Source of the DNA: Desulfomicrobium macestii
GTDB lineage: Bacteria; Desulfobacterota; Desulfovibrionia; Desulfovibrionales; Desulfomicrobiaceae
Reading direction: 5' to 3'
NCBI RefSeq assembly: GCF_014873765.1
Contig: NZ_JADBGG010000037.1
Span: forward strand, 1 to 34,785
Length of the DNA stretch: 34,785 nucleotides
The first letter of the stretch is position 1. The number at the start of each line of letters is the position of its first letter. Shown piece by piece: positions 26,300-34,756 of the stretch. The position numbers and the translations under genes were made by a program. Below the pieces are notes generated by a model. The model ran no database searches, was not told the origin of the DNA, and saw only the letters and a list, made by a program, of their open reading frames with translations.

Positions 26300-27607
26300 T
26301 CATCGTATGAACTCCACTCTCAAGGCTGCCTGAATCTTGTCCCGCTGCGCCGGATTCACCTGCGCCTCGTCAGCATAGTCCAGCCAGCGGGCAACGACGC
26401 CCTGTACTTCGGCAACGATCGTTTCCGCTCGTCCGCGCTTCATCGAGGCGCTCTGTGCGCACGCCTTGAAATCGTCCAGAGTGAAGCCATCCCGTTTGCC
26501 ATTCAGGGTCATTTGGTGGCGCGCTGTCCATTGCCCGTTTGGCTGATAGCTGTAGGTCATGTCAAACGCCGGTGAGAGCGACCATTTCCCCGTCCGGTCC
26601 ATCAGAAAAGCAATGTTCTTGACGTGGTCATCCTGGTTGCGGGCAACGACATTGAACACCATCCGCCGGAACTGCTCCTCGATGGCCGCCATCGGCAGTC
26701 CCAGTCGGCGGATGACCTGCAAGGCCTGCTCATAGCCGTATGCGCCGGCCTGGTTGAAATCATAATGGGCCATGCCGCACAAGGATTGCATGTGCAGCTT
26801 GTCTCCGCCATCCAGACGGTCGAACCGTTTCGTCATGAAATGGCGACGACCGTTCTCCTCGAACAGGCGGCTTGGGCTCATGGTGATTCCCGCGTCGAGG
26901 GCCATTCGATAATAGGCGTATTCGATCGCGCCGTATCCCTTCGGGTCCTCCTGTTCCTTGTCCTTGTTGCCGCTGACCCCGTCGAACTTCATCAGCCAGT
27001 ATTCAAACCCGCTACCCGCCTTGACCTGGCCCGAGCGCACTTCGCCCGTTTGCGGATTCCAGGCGATGATCGCCTTGGCCCGCGCCCCGCCCGCGGAAGT
27101 TCCGACTTGCAGAATGTCCCGCAGTGCTGTTTCCTTGCCGTCTTCCTTGACCCAGCCGCGCAGGTTGTCGCGATGGGTCAAAACCTTCGAAGCCAGCTCG
27201 ACCAATTTGTCGACTTCGATCCGGGACGTGCCGGACGCGTCCAATCGGATTGACGGAACATATTCAAGCGCCCCCATGCCGCGCGAACCGGTATAGTAAA
27301 GACGTTCCACCGCGTTGAACGATTCCGGCAAACGACCGGACCGGGCAAGCCAGGCATCGATCAATGCATTGCCGAACCGGTCGGGCAACGAATCCGCGAG
27401 CAACCCCGGCAGACCGTGGAAGGTTTCCGGTCGCAGCGATGGAAAGGAGTAGAGTCGGCGGGAAAGAGGCATCATCAGCGGGGCCACCTCGATACCGCTC
27501 CTGCTGAACGCCGTGTCGTATTCAAACATCGCGCTCGCAGCCCCGTCCTCAAGAGACACAGCGCCGATCGTGCTCCCCCACAGCTTGACCGTTGCCGTCG
27601 TGCTCAT
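26300..27607 (-). CDS. hipA: HipA-family serine/threonine kinase toxin (first HipBA pair)
   Basis: 435 aa. The N-terminal subdomain (LPGLLADSLPDRFGNALIDA) is followed by the kinase. Its nucleotide loop is GTSAGGARAK (173-178 for GGARAK), then WLMKFDGV, MTKRFDR, the catalytic NQDDHVKN (324-331) and the metal-binding DMTYS. HipA kinases phosphorylate cellular targets such as aminoacyl-tRNA synthetases and cause growth arrest; the upstream HipB neutralises and represses. All key residues appear present. The start overlaps the hipB stop by ATGA. Confidence 0.93.
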   Translation of the reverse strand: MSTTATVKLWGSTIGAVSLEDGAASAMFEYDTAFSRSGIEVAPLMMPLSRRLYSFPSLRPETFHGLPGLLADSLPDRFGNALIDAWLARSGRLPESFNAVERLYYTGSRGMGALEYVPSIRLDASGTSRIEVDKLVELASKVLTHRDNLRGWVKEDGKETALRDILQVGTSAGGARAKAIIAWNPQTGEVRSGQVKAGSGFEYWLMKFDGVSGNKDKEQEDPKGYGAIEYAYYRMALDAGITMSPSRLFEENGRRHFMTKRFDRLDGGDKLHMQSLCGMAHYDFNQAGAYGYEQALQVIRRLGLPMAAIEEQFRRMVFNVVARNQDDHVKNIAFLMDRTGKWSLSPAFDMTYSYQPNGQWTARHQMTLNGKRDGFTLDDFKACAQSASMKRGRAETIVAEVQGVVARWLDYADEAQVNPAQRDKIQAALRVEFIR

Positions 27608-27951
27608 GTTTCATCACCCCACTGCCACGGCCCTTCCTGTGCGGCCTGCCGCTTGCCGCTGGCCCTTTTGCGCGCCTTGCCCTTAAGCCTGACCAAATCC
27701 ATGGGACGGGGGACGGCCTCGGGCACCAGCGTTTCCAACCGGTCCAGGAGTTCCAAAGCCCGCAGAATCCGGATCAAGGTCGACATTTGCGCCGTGGCCC
27801 CAGCCTCGATGCGCTCCACCGTCCGCTTCGAAACCCCCGCCTGGTCCGCCAACATTTCCTGGGTAAACTGAAGTTCCAGCCGACGCTGCACAATCCGCCG
27901 CCCCAGCTCTGTCAGAATGGCTTCGTCCGTCAACAATCCTTCGATCTTCAT
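27604..27951 (-). CDS. hipB: HipB-like antitoxin, XRE-family HTH
   Basis: 115 aa. The helix-turn-helix covers roughly residues 15-70 (LGRRIVQRRLELQFTQEMLA, DQAGVSKRTVERIEAGA), and the C-terminal tail is basic (LKGKARKRASGKRQ). It should bind the operon promoter and its cognate HipA. The ATG at 27951 is chosen because GGAGG lies 7 bp upstream. A longer frame from a TTG at 28002 lacks this. Upstream, TGACGAC occurs twice 40 bp apart (27994 and 28034) and could be an operator, though this is weak. Confidence 0.9.
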   Translation of the reverse strand: MKIEGLLTDEAILTELGRRIVQRRLELQFTQEMLADQAGVSKRTVERIEAGATAQMSTLIRILRALELLDRLETLVPEAVPRPMDLVRLKGKARKRASGKRQAAQEGPWQWGDET

Positions 27952-28342
27952 CTCCGCGACCTCCGTAGATAAAAAACCATATATCGCAATAACTGACGAC
28001 AAACAACTTAAAAAAGCTTATTTTCGCCATTAATGACGACTTACATAAATGAACTTGATAAATTTGAAAGGGATGGTGGAAAGACGTTTGGAACGGCAGG
28101 AACCATTCAATATTATTACAATAATTCAGTATATTGAATAAAAATTCGCTGAAAAGTCGAAACTATGATTTGTGGATTTTGCGTTTGGCTTTCGGTTATT
28201 CACATCAAGGATTAGCCAAAGGCAGACTTGATAATCATACAAAAGGACACCGCCGATATAGCAGATGACCGAGTCCTCTGCTATATCGGCGGTGGGAAAC
28301 ACTCATATCGGAGGAGGCCAATGGCTAACCCAGAAAGTCGAG
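27952..28342. other. AT-rich intergenic region between hipB and the immunity gene
   Basis: About 390 bp without a supported gene. It contains the hipB promoter side (AT-rich, 27960-28080) and the long perfect palindrome at 28248-28294. Confidence 0.6.
28248..28294. repeat. Perfect 18-bp inverted repeat with 11-nt spacer
   Basis: CACCGCCGATATAGCAGA (28248-28265) and its exact reverse complement (28277-28294) are separated by TGACCGAGTCC. Neither strand has a T tract after it, so it is not a typical terminator. It lies 48 bp from the end of the putative immunity gene. Confidence 0.9.
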
Positions 28343-28813
28343 TTATTGTTCTTTATTGTTGAGTTCTGCGTATTCCGACTTGATCTCCTCCAGACACAGA
28401 CAACGGAACAATTCCTCTTTTCCGTTATTCATCGTGAAGGCTTCAAGGGCATTGATGGCGTTGCCGAGCCATGTCTTCAATGTGATTTCATCTGTTTCGA
28501 AAAACGGATCCATGCAGTAGCGCTGTGGCTTAACGCCAGCTTTCGACAAGAGGCGTATTGCGGCAACCGTCTGAGAAGGAATATTTTTAGCCACGCTAAC
28601 TCTCCATGTCGTGGCAATTGCGGCATCGGATTCTTTGTACATGCTCAACAATATATCCATATTAGCCTGGATATCTTCGCAAGATTTTGTTATGATATAT
28701 TCATTTTTTTTGTTAAATATGACTTGTTCTTCAAATTCGTCTGAAGAATAGGAATTTTTGCTCAATAACAAAATTATTATCAATGTAACAATGCTATAAT
28801 TCACGATTTTCAT
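28343..28813 (-). CDS. Putative periplasmic immunity protein for the adjacent Tlde1-like effector
   Basis: 156 aa. The N-terminus MKIVNYSIVTLIIILLLSKN, then SYS, is a signal peptide; the mature part is about 130 residues, mostly helical, with four cysteines (SCED, RYCMD, FRCLCL) that could form disulfides. Its start overlaps the stop of the effector gene by ATGA. Known Tldi1 immunity proteins are small, exported and encoded directly downstream of Tlde1, so the assignment rests on position and export signal, not on sequence match. AT-rich compared with neighbours. Confidence 0.68.
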   Translation of the reverse strand: MKIVNYSIVTLIIILLLSKNSYSSDEFEEQVIFNKKNEYIITKSCEDIQANMDILLSMYKESDAAIATTWRVSVAKNIPSQTVAAIRLLSKAGVKPQRYCMDPFFETDEITLKTWLGNAINALEAFTMNNGKEELFRCLCLEEIKSEYAELNNKEQ

Positions 28814-29172
28814 CTCACTATAAGGCTAGTATCACCGCTTTGACTGATCGCAATTCTTGCATTTCTCGGCAAGACAATACACCCACTCGAAGCTAATCCA
28901 GGCCGCCTGGCACTATCGCCATGAATCTGAAAAGAACGGCGACCATGCGCAGTATGACCGACAGGATTGAGCAACAAAATCATTTGTCCTGTTTGAGCGC
29001 TATTACGTAATTCAGAGTCAATTCTCCATGACCCTCTTGGTATGGGACCTTCATTGACGATGTTCTCGGATGCAGGTTGATTTCGATGCGGAGGATGGCC
29101 GCTGTATCCTTGATATTCCTCCCCTCCGGGACCAGTAATTCTTCCTGATTGCTGATCATAGATCCAAGGCAT
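28810..29172 (-). CDS. Tlde1-like (DUF2778) L,D-transpeptidase-fold T6SS effector
   Basis: 120 aa. It begins MPWIYDQQSGRITGPGGEEY and carries the family pattern EGPIPRGSWRI, then FQIHGDS (H84) and ASSGCIVLPR (C98), the catalytic His/Cys signature of the DUF2778/Tlde1 group. Tlde1 effectors are delivered to the periplasm by type VI secretion and cut or exchange peptidoglycan stem peptides of rivals. There is no signal peptide, as expected for a secreted effector. AGGAGAA precedes the ATG. No VgrG, PAAR, Hcp or other T6SS gene is in the window. Confidence 0.85.
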   Translation of the reverse strand: MPWIYDQQSGRITGPGGEEYQGYSGHPPHRNQPASENIVNEGPIPRGSWRIDSELRNSAQTGQMILLLNPVGHTAHGRRSFQIHGDSARRPGLASSGCIVLPRNARIAISQSGDTSLIVR

Positions 29173-29657: not shown

Positions 29658-29999
29658 ATGTCACCCAAGAAAACATCCGCCCACGACCTGCCGGGGAGCC
29701 CCGCCGCCAATCTTGAACGCCTAGGGGACAACATTCGCGCCGCCCGGAAGCTGCGCGGCCTGAGCATGCAGGACCTGGCCGCACGCACCATGACCACGCG
29801 CGAGACCATCCGCCGCCTGGAAAACGGGCACCCCGGGGTGTCCCTCGGGGTGCTGGCCCATGTCCTGTGGGTTCTGCAGCTCGACGACCAGCTTGGCGGC
29901 ATGGCCTCCCTGGAATCCGACCCCGTAGGCAGGGCCATGGCCGTGAGCAGACTGCCGCAACGCGTTACAACGGAGGTGAGCGATGCCCTCGACTTCTGA
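29658..29999 (+). CDS. HipB-like XRE-family antitoxin/regulator (second pair)
   Basis: 113 aa. The helix-turn-helix is at about 20-75 (LGDNIRAARKLRGLSMQDLA, TMTTRETIRRLENG), and a C-terminal stretch with PVGRAMAVSRLPQRVTTEV follows. Its end overlaps the HipA-like gene by 17 bp, the arrangement of an antitoxin before its toxin. The ribosome site is weak (AGGTA about 20 bp upstream); the neighbouring ATGs at 29651 and 29654 are in other frames. Its sequence is not close to the HipB at 27604-27951. The whole pair is GC-rich, unlike the genes on either side. Confidence 0.85.
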   Translation: MSPKKTSAHDLPGSPAANLERLGDNIRAARKLRGLSMQDLAARTMTTRETIRRLENGHPGVSLGVLAHVLWVLQLDDQLGGMASLESDPVGRAMAVSRLPQRVTTEVSDALDF

Positions 30000-31239
30000 G
30001 CGAGCAGTGGTCTTCATCCGCCTGTCCGGCATGGACTACGTTCCTGCGGGGCTGCTCAGGCATGAGGACCGGGCATATTTCTTCCGCTACGGCCGCCGGT
30101 ATCTTGAGCGGCCAGACGCCATTCCCCTCGACCCGGCCCGGATGCCCCTTGCCGACATGGAGTTTTCCGGAAGCACCCTTTTCAGCGCCCTGCGCGACGC
30201 AGCCCCGGACCGCTGGGGCCGCAAAGTGCTGGGACTCATGGCTGGTCGCGCCCCCGGAACGCTGAGCGAATTCGAAGTTCTGACGGCGGCCCATCATCCG
30301 CAGCGCATGGGCGCCCTGGCCTTCGGCCCCACACCGAACGGTCCCGCGTCCCTGGCTCCCTGGGCCACAGGCGATGCATTCTGCATGGTGCCCGAAGACC
30401 TGGGGCGGGTGGCGGCCATCGTCGCCCGCGTCGATGAGGTCGAGGACGACGAGGAATTCGATGCAGTGCGAAGCGGCATGCCTGAAGACGCGTTCCTGGC
30501 CGCCCTCGCCTCCAGCCTGTCCCTGGGCGGGGCCAGGCCCAAGGCCATGGTCACCCTGGACGGAACGTCCTGGATCGCCAAATTCTCCAAACGCGGGGAC
30601 CCGTGGCGCGAACCCGTAATCGAGCATGCGACCATGACCCTGGCCGCACGCTGCGGCATCACGGTCGCATCGACACGGCTGATGGAACTGGACGGGCATT
30701 TCGTCCTGCTGGTTGAGCGTTTCGACCGCCTAAGCGGCGGCTCGCGGCACGTCATTTCTGGCTTCACGGTGACGGGGGCCGAGGAAGACGGCGACTGGGG
30801 CAGCTATCAGAACCTGGCCGAACAGGCCCGCAGGCTCGGCGACGCGGACTCCGGCCCGGAGATATTCCGCCGCATGGCTTTCAACGCCCTGTGTTCGAAC
30901 CGGGACGACCACCTGCGCAACCACGCCTTTTTCGTCTCGCGCAAAACCGTCGCCATGACCCCGGCCTACGACCTGGTGCCATCCGCCATCCGCTTCAGGC
31001 AATGGGACCTGTCCCTGCGCTGCGGACTGGAAGGCCGCGCGGCCACGCGGTCCAATATCCTAAGCGACGTCCGGCCCTTCGGGCTCAGCGAAAGTGAGGC
31101 AAGGAGAATCTGGGAAGAAATGCGGGAAACGACCACAGGCTGGCGAGAGCATTTCGCCGGGCACGGCGTGACAAAGCGGGAGATGGAGGAGCTCAGGCAC
31201 CGCTTCACATTGGCGGAAGCTGCATCAACGGGCCCATAG
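29983..31239 (+). CDS. HipA-family kinase, divergent subfamily (second pair)
   Basis: 418 aa. Kinase elements in order: SLGGARPKAMV (GGARPK about 182-187), WIAKFSKRGD with the nucleotide-binding Lys, VERFDRLSGG, catalytic NRDDHLRNHAF (306-313) and AYDLVPS. The N-terminal part (SGMDYVPAGLLRHEDRAYFF) differs strongly from the HipA at 26300-27607 and lacks its PLSRRL...PGLLADSLPD pattern in the same form, having FSALRDAAPDRWGRKVL instead. It is probably a growth-arrest kinase controlled by the overlapping HTH gene. A hairpin follows at the stop codon. Confidence 0.88.
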   Translation: MPSTSERAVVFIRLSGMDYVPAGLLRHEDRAYFFRYGRRYLERPDAIPLDPARMPLADMEFSGSTLFSALRDAAPDRWGRKVLGLMAGRAPGTLSEFEVLTAAHHPQRMGALAFGPTPNGPASLAPWATGDAFCMVPEDLGRVAAIVARVDEVEDDEEFDAVRSGMPEDAFLAALASSLSLGGARPKAMVTLDGTSWIAKFSKRGDPWREPVIEHATMTLAARCGITVASTRLMELDGHFVLLVERFDRLSGGSRHVISGFTVTGAEEDGDWGSYQNLAEQARRLGDADSGPEIFRRMAFNALCSNRDDHLRNHAFFVSRKTVAMTPAYDLVPSAIRFRQWDLSLRCGLEGRAATRSNILSDVRPFGLSESEARRIWEEMRETTTGWREHFAGHGVTKREMEELRHRFTLAEAASTGP

Positions 31240-31422: not shown

Positions 31423-31513
31423 ATGAACGCACATTTTTTTAATGGTAAGAGCGGCATTTTTATGCGATGAGCGGAGCCACGTGAATTTCATCACATAAGA
31501 AGGAGCTGTAGAC

Positions 31514-31909
31514 TTGAACTGGCCATCTTATTATCCCCCCGACTGTCCACCTGCAGATGCTCATGATGCCATTGGAGAAATCTACCGATTTGTCACCAAA
31601 CGGGAGCTTCATGATCTGCCATCAGGTTTTTTATGCCATAAGTTGAAAGTCCCAGATCAATGCCAAGATCGCGAGCCTTGCTTAGTTTGTGGCCTTTCCG
31701 TGTCAGTCACGTATCAAGACTGCTTATACGAAAAGCATCTCTCTCCATATTTACGGAAGAAGAGAATTCTTTTTGCCATACTGGAGGAACCTTTGGGGAA
31801 AATTCTTAACACTCCAGAAGTAAGTCCGAATCACTTCACATGGTGGCTCCCTACTTGTTTAAAAAACCCTTGGGATTTGTTCGAGGTTTTCGATTATGAT
31901 ACAGAATAA
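31514..31909 (+). CDS. Unknown protein (131 aa), first gene of a two-gene accessory operon
   Basis: TTG start with AGAAGGAGC 8 bp upstream. It begins MNWPSYYPPDCPPADAHDAI and has a conserved-looking CLVCGLSVSV and DCLYEKHLSP, then PNHFTWWLPTCLKNPWDLFE. Six cysteines include the CxxC of CLVCG, so a metal site is possible but not shown. No signal peptide or membrane segment. Its end overlaps the next gene by 14 bp, so the two are translationally coupled. I do not recognise a family. AT-rich, probably recently acquired. Confidence 0.78.
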   Translation: MNWPSYYPPDCPPADAHDAIGEIYRFVTKRELHDLPSGFLCHKLKVPDQCQDREPCLVCGLSVSVTYQDCLYEKHLSPYLRKKRILFAILEEPLGKILNTPEVSPNHFTWWLPTCLKNPWDLFEVFDYDTE

Positions 31910-33116
31910 CACATTCATTCCCAAAGGGACGTCGCTCGGCGAGCTGCAAATAGTCGATGTATTCCAGTATTACGACTTTCCAATTTTGTTTGCATGCATT
32001 AATCAGAGCAAATCTGTATTTATATCTTTATGTATAGATGAAGATGAACATGGTTATTATTGGCTATACTCACATGTATCAAATAAGACAATGAGCAGAT
32101 TAAAATCTGGCGAAATAGATTTTAGAGATGCTATTCTTAGCTCTATAAATGGAGTTTTATTTAAAATTTATACAAAATTAAACGGAGATTCTGTAGTAAA
32201 ACTCGCAGATATAGGGGAAATTAATGATGAAATGCTCCCTTTTAGCGGAATCAAAATAGAAAATTCTGAAGAAAAATACGTTCCGTACTATGCAGAATCG
32301 TCGATTATAGCGAAATCTACAGAACGAGGAGTTTTGAACTTAGTTGTAGAAACACGTAATAAAAGAAAAGAAGCGCCAGCTAGAAGTGTTGGAAAATTAT
32401 TAACTCACGCACAGAATACATTTGATGCGATTGGGTACAAATTGAGTGGTTTTTTCAAACCACTTTGTAACATCCCCAAAATGATTACCGACCAAACAGC
32501 GCTACAGTTCGCTATGACTTTTCCAGGGTCTTTTGGAATTCAATTAAGATCGTCGTATCGGGCTGATAGCCCTGAATTTACACTTTTTGAGCATACAGCA
32601 GCAAAACTATATAGTATATTTAATGCAACTAGCGAGGAATTCCCAGACACCCTTTCTGGACTTGATCAAGTATCAATAGCTTCAATTTCAAAACTCTTGG
32701 TGCCACTTGATGAAATGAACTCCGGCCTATACATAGAGTATTTTCTGCCGAATAAAAATATTAAAAGGACAACTATATCCACAGCAGAATCTATCTCTGA
32801 GAAATTAAATATCATAAAAGAAATTGAATTATCAGAAACGCAAATGCAAGTATCTGGAAAAATTGACGGAATTATTTTATCAAAAAAACAATTCAGCATA
32901 ATTGATGAGCATGGGATAAATTATATAGGACACATACAGGATTCAGCAATGGAGGCAGCTTCAGTTGTAAAAATCAATAGTCCATGCACAGCATTGATAA
33001 AAACTAGTATAAAGCACAGCAAATCTTCAGACAAAATAATCGAAAAGCACACGTTGATAGACTTAAAAATTATTGCCGCGGACGTTGAGCAGGACAACAG
33101 TCAAAACGGTAATTAA
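31896..33116 (+). CDS. DUF6575-like protein (406 aa), second gene of the accessory operon
   Basis: The first ~100 residues (SLGELQIVDVFQYYDFPILF, then SVFISLCIDEDEHGYYWLYS and LKSGEIDFRDAI) look like the DUF6575 domain of unknown function. The middle has a longer domain with QFAMTFPGSFGIQLRSSYRA. The C-terminal part (SEKLNIIKEIELSETQMQVS, VSGKIDGIILSKKQFSIIDE, NYIGHIQDSA) reads as small beta-rich domains. No transmembrane segment and no recognisable catalytic motif. The gene overlaps the 131-aa gene. Its position among toxin-antitoxin, effector and broken restriction genes suggests defence, which is inference only. Confidence 0.82.
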   Translation: MIQNNTFIPKGTSLGELQIVDVFQYYDFPILFACINQSKSVFISLCIDEDEHGYYWLYSHVSNKTMSRLKSGEIDFRDAILSSINGVLFKIYTKLNGDSVVKLADIGEINDEMLPFSGIKIENSEEKYVPYYAESSIIAKSTERGVLNLVVETRNKRKEAPARSVGKLLTHAQNTFDAIGYKLSGFFKPLCNIPKMITDQTALQFAMTFPGSFGIQLRSSYRADSPEFTLFEHTAAKLYSIFNATSEEFPDTLSGLDQVSIASISKLLVPLDEMNSGLYIEYFLPNKNIKRTTISTAESISEKLNIIKEIELSETQMQVSGKIDGIILSKKQFSIIDEHGINYIGHIQDSAMEAASVVKINSPCTALIKTSIKHSKSSDKIIEKHTLIDLKIIAADVEQDNSQNGN

Positions 33117-34339: not shown

Positions 34340-34756
34340 TTACTTATCGTATTGCTTTATTGCCAATCCCAACTCAGCACGATATTTATATATTTCAGAT
34401 ATTTTACTAATATCAACTCTCATCTCATTATCAGGAACAAATATAGACAATGATTTTTTTGACTTCCCAAAATAAAGACGACATATCGGTCGACGATTGT
34501 TGTTGTCTAACAATATTGCACAATAACTTTTTGCATCGCGCAATGTGATTCTATCAGTATCTACATACTCTGCCCCGATTGCACGCACAATTCTATAGGA
34601 CTCTAATTCTTCATCAGTTGTGATAACGCCGCTTGACTTTTCTACATTACCTTCGATTACATCTTCTTGCTTTATATTATTCGAAGAAGAGGTAGTGTGC
34701 GGGATCTTCAGCAAAAAGAAAGACCATGGCATATGTGGGTTGTACCACCAAACCAC
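34340..34756 (-). pseudogene. C-terminal part of a restriction-type (type I R-like) protein, truncated
   Basis: The frame contains TTDEELESYRIVRAIGAEYV, RITLRDAKSYCAILLDNNNR and RPICRLYFGKSKKS, then ISEIYKYRAELGLAIKQYDK. This matches the small C-terminal domain I associate with restriction endonuclease subunit R-like proteins (EELE-Y-IV-A-I, RD-KSYF-ILLDDNNRKPICRL-F). The upstream ~15 codons (MVWWYNPHMPWSFF) are read from the sequence of the mobile-gene end at 34722-34785, so the true N-terminal part is displaced or lost. AT-rich. Confidence 0.65.

What the first reader, a model, noticed from the sequence alone, without database searches (positions are those of the whole stretch)
31514..33116. 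AT-rich two-gene operon with a DUF6575-like protein, candidate undescribed system
A 131-aa cysteine-containing protein and a 406-aa multi-domain protein overlap by 14 bp and are clearly foreign in composition. They sit between toxin-antitoxin and decayed restriction genes. Neither has a known function, and the tight coupling implies a two-component complex. This is the best place in the window for a new defence or toxin-antitoxin type system.
Basis: inference. Interest (0 to 1): 0.72.

Follow-up and report, generated by a model that had tools for sequence, protein, structure and literature searches.

The report
PD-T4-10-like toxin-antitoxin pair
Two overlapping foreign genes form a distant, re-tooled version of a recently described bacterial toxin-antitoxin pair that stops phage infection, and the likely antitoxin is predicted to resemble ADP-ribosylating enzymes, a link not found in the papers that could be searched.

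Summary
In detail: a 131-aa and a 406-aa gene overlap by 14 bp, are AT-rich in a GC-rich contig and follow hipBA. The pair is not undescribed. Gene A and the N-terminal DUF6575 domain of B are homologous to PD-T4-10 A and B, an E. coli abortive-infection pair in which B is toxic and A neutralises it (published). The pairing recurs in Cyanobacteria, Poribacteria, Actinomycetota, Gammaproteobacteria and a staphylococcal phage. Full-length B (384-434 aa) has an intact A in 16 of 16 loci, shortened B in 11 of 27. Some copies lie beside Druantia, PD-T7-4 or restriction genes, or in prophages; others have no such neighbour. The effector end differs: this B has a middle alpha/beta domain and a predicted OB fold, not the PD-T4-10 B C-terminus; enterobacterial relatives end in DUF7226 instead. 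New here: A is predicted to have an ADP-ribosyltransferase-like fold (suggestive scores, no sequence-level support), with S62 and H107 invariant and R25 kept in 23 of 25. Best reading: a PD-T4-10-like toxin-antitoxin variant; whether A is an enzyme is open and testable.

The parts
31500..31505 (+). Shine-Dalgarno-like box AAGGAG, 8 nt before the TTG start of gene A
   Evidence: read
31514..31909 (+). gene A, 131 aa: PD-T4-10 A homologue, probable antitoxin; predicted ADP-ribosyltransferase-like fold; S62 and H107 in 25 of 25, R25 in 23 of 25
31896..31909 (+). 14-bp overlap of A and B
31896..33116 (+). gene B, 406 aa: probable toxin/effector
31944..32249 (+). B N-terminal DUF6575 domain (aa 17-118), the part that matches PD-T4-10 B; probable contact with A (inferred)
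32298..32831 (+). B middle alpha/beta domain (aa 135-312), missing or eroded in shortened relatives; probable toxic domain (inferred)
32832..33080 (+). B C-terminal predicted OB fold (aa 313-395)

Best explanation
The pair is a PD-T4-10-like toxin-antitoxin module acting by abortive infection. B is the toxin: its N-terminal DUF6575 domain presents it to A, its middle alpha/beta domain is the harmful part, and its C-terminal OB fold probably brings it to nucleic acid. A, translated just before B through the 14-bp overlap, keeps B silent; phage infection relieves A, and B stops the cell before phage release. SHOWN elsewhere for PD-T4-10: B toxic, A neutralises, B needed for defence, abortive infection, protection against T-even phages. 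SHOWN here: homology of A and of B's N-domain to that pair, conserved order, and full-length B always accompanied by an intact A in the loci found. INFERRED: that this pair is toxic and defends, which domain is toxic, that A contacts the N-domain, the nucleic-acid target, the trigger.
For: PADLOC PD-T4-10_A/B match the two genes in the same order (window A only E 0.032, B 2.6e-4). Of 20 A proteins scanned 14 match PD-T4-10_A at E<=1, 11 of them at E<=0.001 (best 6.7e-32, L051); 6 do not match. Of 11 B proteins 9 match PD-T4-10_B at E<=0.001, always within its first 132 of 353 positions. A profile of the other 24 A proteins finds the L051 PD-T4-10 A at E 2.2e-6 and the window's A at 6.4e-29. 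Full-length B has an intact A in 16 of 16 loci, shortened B in 11 of 27, with a split or partial A in 5 and no trace in 11 (Fisher p 5.6e-5, not corrected for kinship). Middle-domain remnants lie behind shortened B in L023 and L024. In 146 cyanobacterial genomes (one of them the known seed) A occurs in 5, each beside DUF6575, which occurs in 6. Defence neighbours: Druantia DruE (L005, L011), PD-T7-4 (L104, the L052 pair), restriction genes as annotated (L006); prophage or phage positions. Published function: PMC9519451 (passages).
Against: The window's own A matches PD-T4-10_A only at E 0.032. PD-T4-10 B's C-terminal region (about 136-347) has no detectable counterpart in this B, so its proven toxicity need not carry over. 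The candidate PDC-M63AB, whose B model matches the middle and OB part of this B, showed no defence in one E. coli host and phage set (PMC12409345, passages). In 4 of 8 full-length genome-collection pairs (L012, L013, L062, L063) I saw no defence or mobile gene nearby (by eye; L012, L013 and L062, L063 only in its 3.2-kb locus). Middle-domain homology is shown by profile in 9 of the 16 full-length B and by hhalign in 5 more; for L062 and L063 only length and the N-domain speak for it. The loci include close relatives.
Confidence: 0.72

Rival explanations
1. Roles reversed: A is an ADP-ribosyltransferase-type toxin and the N-terminal domain of B is its immunity/antitoxin partner.
For: A's predicted fold resembles ADP-ribosyltransferases, many of which are toxins. 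In the A-first searches no real A stood without a B-like neighbour, while N-domains without any trace of A are common (11 of 27 shortened B), as expected of orphan antitoxins. One Foldseek hit of B (rank 19, E 0.0093) is a chain of the RhsP2-RhsI2 toxin-immunity complex (7rt7_C); RhsI2 blocks the active site of an ART toxin (PMC11833690, passages). Which chain this is, and which part of B aligns, was not determined.
Against: In PD-T4-10 B is toxic, A neutralises it and A could not be deleted (PMC9519451). Full-length B was never found without an intact A (16 of 16), which this model does not predict.
Confidence: 0.12
2. A and B form one effector complex, both needed for damage or for sensing, not a toxin and its antidote.
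For: Conserved gene order; A has conserved, possibly catalytic residues.
Against: Published neutralisation data for PD-T4-10; A is lost or broken in 16 of 27 loci with shortened B but in none of 16 with full-length B.
Confidence: 0.1
3. An inert remnant in a decaying island.
For: A gene fragment nearby; the pair is rare: DUF6575 in 2 of 348 genomes of the class and B in 1 of 16 of the genus, the window's own genome included.
Against: Both frames are open, the start has a good ribosome site, B covers nearly the whole of the N, middle and OB profiles (those profiles include the window's own B), and A keeps R25, S62 and H107.
Confidence: 0.06

Closest known systems
PD-T4-10 (Vassallo et al. 2022, PMC9519451; passages seen)
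   Same: Two overlapping ORFs, small A then DUF6575 B; A homologous; B homologous over its first ~130 aa
   Different: C-terminal effector region of B is unrelated by sequence; the window's A is remote from the PADLOC model
PF20215 DUF6575
   Same: B aa 6-180, 63.9 bits over a 26.6 cut-off
   Different: Pfam gives no function
PDC-M63AB (PADLOC candidate; tested in PMC12409345, passages seen)
   Same: PDC-M63B matches the middle and OB part of B, aa 192-389, E 8.3e-8
   Different: The 309-position PDC-M63B model leaves no room for a full DUF6575 N-domain (L012 aa 117-386 fits its positions 37-307); A gave no PDC-M63A match; no defence was seen in that study
ADP-ribosyltransferase superfamily (Tpt1/KptA, RES, DarT)
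   Same: Predicted fold of A
   Different: No conserved catalytic glutamate; a histidine is invariant instead; no sequence-level match
Type VII toxin-antitoxin systems (enzymatic antitoxin; recalled)
   Same: A may be an enzyme-fold antitoxin
   Different: No modification of B shown

Membership tests
PD-T4-10 | A homologous to PD-T4-10_A | tested here: met
   Window A E 0.032 alone; 11 of 20 A proteins at E<=0.001, best 6.7e-32; leave-one-out profile finds L051 A at 2.2e-6 and window A at 6.4e-29
PD-T4-10 | B N-terminal domain homologous to PD-T4-10_B | tested here: met
   Window E 2.6e-4; 9 of 11 B proteins at E<=0.001
PD-T4-10 | C-terminal region of PD-T4-10_B (about 136-353) | tested here: not met
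   No match beyond position 132; hhalign with two stand-alone copies, L049 and L050, E 0.54 (two-sequence profile)
PD-T4-10 | Overlapping A-B gene order | tested here: met
   14-bp overlap; some relatives have a short gap instead (L005, L012)
PD-T4-10 | B toxic, neutralised by A; abortive infection of T-even phages | not testable with these tools
   needs expression and phage assays
Pfam DUF6575 | score over the curated cut-off | tested here: met
   63.9 against 26.6 bits
PDC-M63 | B match | tested here: met
   E 8.3e-8 over aa 192-389
PDC-M63 | A match to PDC-M63A | tested here: inconclusive
   no PDC-M63A match for the window A at E<=1; I did not see the PDC-M63A model or its members
ADP-ribosyltransferase superfamily | ART fold | tested here: inconclusive
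   AF2 pLDDT 78.5, pTM 0.74; Foldseek best E 0.098, prob 0.94; best Z 6.1, rmsd 3.2, 88 aligned, none of 162 chains at Z 8 or more
ADP-ribosyltransferase superfamily | catalytic R-S-E triad (recalled) | tested here: not met
   R25 23 of 25, S62 25 of 25, no E among positions kept in 18 or more of 25; H107 25 of 25 instead
Type VII toxin-antitoxin | antitoxin covalently modifies the toxin | not testable with these tools
   needs biochemistry

The most novel reading that the evidence does not exclude
A is an ADP-ribosyltransferase-fold antitoxin that uses NAD+ and an R-S-H site (R25, S62, H107, each predicted on or at a strand) to silence B by modifying it, giving a type VII-like class of toxin-antitoxin in which an ART protects instead of kills. 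B would be a modular toxin: a constant A-binding DUF6575 domain, a middle effector domain, and exchangeable tails (OB fold or DUF7226).
Probability: 0.2. Interest if true: 0.82.

Novelty: new variant of a known kind. Interest (0 to 1): 0.5.

Why it matters
PD-T4-10 was reported in 2022 with no predicted function for either protein. These distant relatives give it a wide family, show which part of B is constant and which is exchangeable, and give A a predicted fold with two invariant residues to mutate. If A is an enzyme, ADP-ribosylation chemistry would be used as an antidote, which reverses a common role of that fold.

Tried and rejected
Rejected: an undescribed kind of system (homology to PD-T4-10). 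Full membership in PD-T4-10 (B C-terminus not met). A family-wide zinc site: C56 and C59 are not among the positions kept in 18 or more of 25 A proteins. A real A in genome G101: the weak hit (E 7.9e-4, three stops inside) lies over an ORF that I read as glutamate racemase.

Led nowhere: tblastn of B in phages and of Rahnella A in phages; genome scan with B alone (31 stretches, no relative); A scan of viral contigs (no relative); Pfam scan of 14 A proteins to E 10 (no ART family); PDB sequence searches with A1, A2, A8 (no ART chain; A2's best is a designed protein, E 0.0028); hhalign of A with RES and KptA (nothing, but the RES-KptA control also gave nothing, so uninformative); PDC-M63B in 274 gammaproteobacterial genomes (none; nothing rang in the control genomes either, so no evidence of absence); middle+OB part of L012 in plasmids and phages (only the known Oscillatoria locus). 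Fold of B's N and middle domains: the fold search was filled by the OB domain, so they are untested.

Rows and choices behind the counts: several loci are one place seen again (L001-L004, L035-L041, L053, L054, L057-L060, L096, L097, L100-L104) and were counted once. L098, a divergent A beside a 241-aa B-like protein, is in neither count because its B gave no profile hit. L009 and L033 (N-domain broken; L033 begins at a contig end) are counted among the shortened B without intact A; L016 (126-aa open A frame without an early start) is counted as intact. 'Full-length' means 384-434 aa. The A profile was built from 23 A proteins that include many loci it then scored; the leave-one-out test is. 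Plasmid and viral loci were found in mobile-element collections, so their mobile setting is no evidence by itself.

Full report
What is there. Gene A (31514-31909, 131 aa, TTG start) and gene B (31896-33116, 406 aa) overlap by 14 bp on the + strand, with an AAGGAG box before A. GC is 0.43 and 0.35 in a window of 0.56. Upstream is a GC-rich hipB-hipA pair; downstream are small AT-rich ORFs and an endonuclease C-terminal fragment.

Family. B is DUF6575 over aa 6-180. PADLOC places the genes, in order, on PD-T4-10_A (E 0.032) and PD-T4-10_B (E 2.6e-4, aa 17-115), and the C-terminal half of B on PDC-M63B (E 8.3e-8, aa 192-389). NCBIfam has nothing. The paper behind PD-T4-10 (PMC9519451; passages seen) reports two overlapping ORFs, neither with a predicted function, B toxic, toxicity neutralised by A, A not deletable, B needed for resistance to T4, abortive infection. 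It was the only paper in the held library with 'PD-T4-10' or 'DUF6575'.

Testing the weak link. The window's A alone matches PD-T4-10_A poorly, so I collected relatives: 24 genome loci by B, plasmid and phage loci, viral contigs, and searches of the window's class, of Cyanobacteria and of Gammaproteobacteria. A proteins from 25 loci align over most of their length. Of 20 A proteins scanned with PADLOC, 14 match PD-T4-10_A at E<=1 and 11 at E<=0.001; L042, L045, L006, L062, L063 and L098 do not. L051, whose A (6.7e-32) and B N-domain (5e-32) are plainly PD-T4-10, is found by a profile of the other 24 A proteins at E 2.2e-6; the window's A scores 6.4e-29 in the same leave-one-out test. Of 11 B proteins, 9 match PD-T4-10_B at E<=0.001, always in its first 132 positions; L005 and L045 do not. 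So A and the N-terminal domain of B belong with PD-T4-10; the rest of B does not: two stand-alone copies of the PD-T4-10_B C-terminal region (L049, L050) show no similarity to it (E 0.54, two-sequence profile).

Pairing. In 146 cyanobacterial genomes, one of them the seed, A occurs in 5 and DUF6575 in 6 (5 over the Pfam cut-off); all 5 A lie directly before DUF6575. In the window's class A matches in 4 of 345 genomes: the window's own and G198 have B adjacent, G130 has a divergent B-like ORF adjacent, and G101 is a chance hit. In plasmids an A query finds 4 records, each a pair already known from B. DUF6575 is in 2 of 348 genomes of the class and B in 1 of 16 of the genus, the window's own included, so the module is rare there. 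Over all distinct loci, 16 full-length B (384-434 aa: window, L005, L006, L007, L010-L013, L042, L043, L045-L047, L052, L062, L063) have an intact A in 16 cases; 27 shortened B (L008, L009, L014-L033, L044, L051, L055, L056, L061; N only, or N plus OB in L020, L028 and L032) have an intact A in 11, a split or partial A in 5 (L021, L023, L025, L028, L033) and no trace in 11 (Fisher p 5.6e-5, kinship not corrected). Remnants of the middle domain lie behind the shortened B of L023 and L024. This is the pattern expected if the part of B behind the N-domain is what makes A necessary. Of the 16, the middle domain is confirmed by profile in 9 (the profile was built from these 9) and by hhalign for the enterobacterial four and the phage copy; for L062 and L063 it is not shown.

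Setting. L005 sits 87 bp after a Druantia DruE gene (E 0) and L011 about 200 bp after a DruE fragment (4.5e-219); L104 (the L052 pair) sits 82 bp after a PD-T7-4 gene (1.8e-92); L006 lies near annotated restriction-modification genes. L043 is in a prophage between a Q antiterminator and a holin; L045 is phage phiPV83 orf62-orf63 near attP; L046 and L047 come from viral contigs; L010 lies among genes that I read as phage tail genes (no family search). Among the 8 full-length pairs from genome collections (window included) I count 4 with such neighbours (window with hipBA, L010, L011, L052) and 4 without (L012, L013, L062, L063), by eye and partial searches.

Domains of B. AF2 (24-row alignment, pLDDT 82.6, pTM 0.58) gives an N-terminal beta domain, a middle alpha/beta domain and a C-terminal barrel. 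The barrel (aa 313-395) is OB-like: best Z 10.5, rmsd 2.0, 80 aligned, to the single-stranded DNA-binding protein Rim1; the metal chaperone CusF, also in that list, shows that the fold does not prove nucleic-acid binding. hhalign of the window group with four enterobacterial-type relatives covers window aa 5-280 (E 6.2e-18) and then stops; of these, L042 and L043 match DUF7226 at their ends (E 2.9e-5 and 1.7e-4, just under Pfam's cut-off). A Lactiplantibacillus plasmid protein that resembles that end (tblastn, E 2e-3) lies beside a DNA adenine methylase. phiPV83 orf63 aligns nearly full length with the window group (E 1.8e-12). So the tail looks exchangeable.

Fold of A. AF2 on 14 A proteins: pLDDT 78.5, pTM 0.74, residues 36-57 poor. 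In Foldseek against the PDB 40 of the 50 listed rows (75 matches in all) are, by my recollection of these families, ADP-ribosyltransferase-fold proteins, led by archaeal Tpt1/KptA (E 0.098, prob 0.94). VIA-align gives Z up to 6.1 (rmsd 3.2, 88 aligned), 20 of 162 chains at Z 5 or more and none at 8. In the viral library the two best hits are uncharacterised phage proteins; named ART-type hits are DarT (rank 3), two RNA 2'-phosphotransferases (8, 10), a rifampin ADP-ribosyltransferase (25) and ModA (44); other named rows, such as an ADP-ribosyl hydrolase, ParB, SprT-like and DEDDh proteins, are not ART. No E-value is below 0.001 and Z under 8 can be a common arrangement, so this is a prediction, not a demonstration; sequence methods gave nothing. 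S62 and H107 are invariant in 25 of 25 A proteins and R25 in 23 of 25 (I in one and Y in one). R25 and S62 fall within predicted strands (21-27, 60-64) and H107 just before strand 108-111, positions that recall the catalytic residues of ADP-ribosyltransferases (recalled), but the usual glutamate is absent. Their closeness in space was not checked, as coordinates are not given.

Verdict. A PD-T4-10-like toxin-antitoxin/abortive-infection module with a different effector end: a new variant of a known kind. The claim most worth a bench test is that its antitoxin has an ADP-ribosyltransferase-type fold and may silence the toxin enzymatically. One search of the held library for type VII toxin-antitoxin systems with ADP-ribosylation listed a single review (PMC8230891, listing only); most subscription papers are not held.

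Noticed in passing
window 28343-29172 (-): 120-aa Tlde1-domain protein (E 5.5e-11) followed by a 156-aa protein with a signal-peptide-like start: looks like a peptidoglycan-directed effector and immunity pair.
   Followed up: no
window 26300-28002 (-) and 29658-31239 (+): Two HipBA-like pairs (the first by reading only, the second by Pfam) within 5 kb, just before the A-B pair.
   Followed up: partly
window 34340-34756 (-): 138-aa ORF matching only positions 247-354 of a 357-position phage endonuclease family: a truncated gene.
   Followed up: no
L045:2050-3655: Staphylococcal phage phiPV83 orf62-orf63 near attP, recorded without a product name, is a distant member of this pair.
   Followed up: partly
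L049:1501-2142 and L050:1492-2187: The C-terminal region of PD-T4-10 B occurs in separate 213- and 231-aa ORFs without the DUF6575 domain (the L049 match holds one stop): the PD-T4-10 effector may be a mobile module of its own.
   Followed up: partly
L051:1050-2010: A PD-T4-10 A with a B cut down to the N-terminal domain (169 aa), in a Parabeggiatoa genome that also holds a second DUF6575 copy without A.
   Followed up: partly
L014-L019, L055, L056: In several cyanobacteria A plus an N-domain-only B is open in frame (L015-L018, L055, L056); in L014-L019 a similar ~130-aa gene lies just upstream, so the short form may have been inherited vertically and kept for another use.
   Followed up: no
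L048:2276-4438: Lactiplantibacillus plasmid protein whose end resembles that of the Rahnella B protein, beside a DNA adenine methylase; possibly a restriction enzyme.
   Followed up: no
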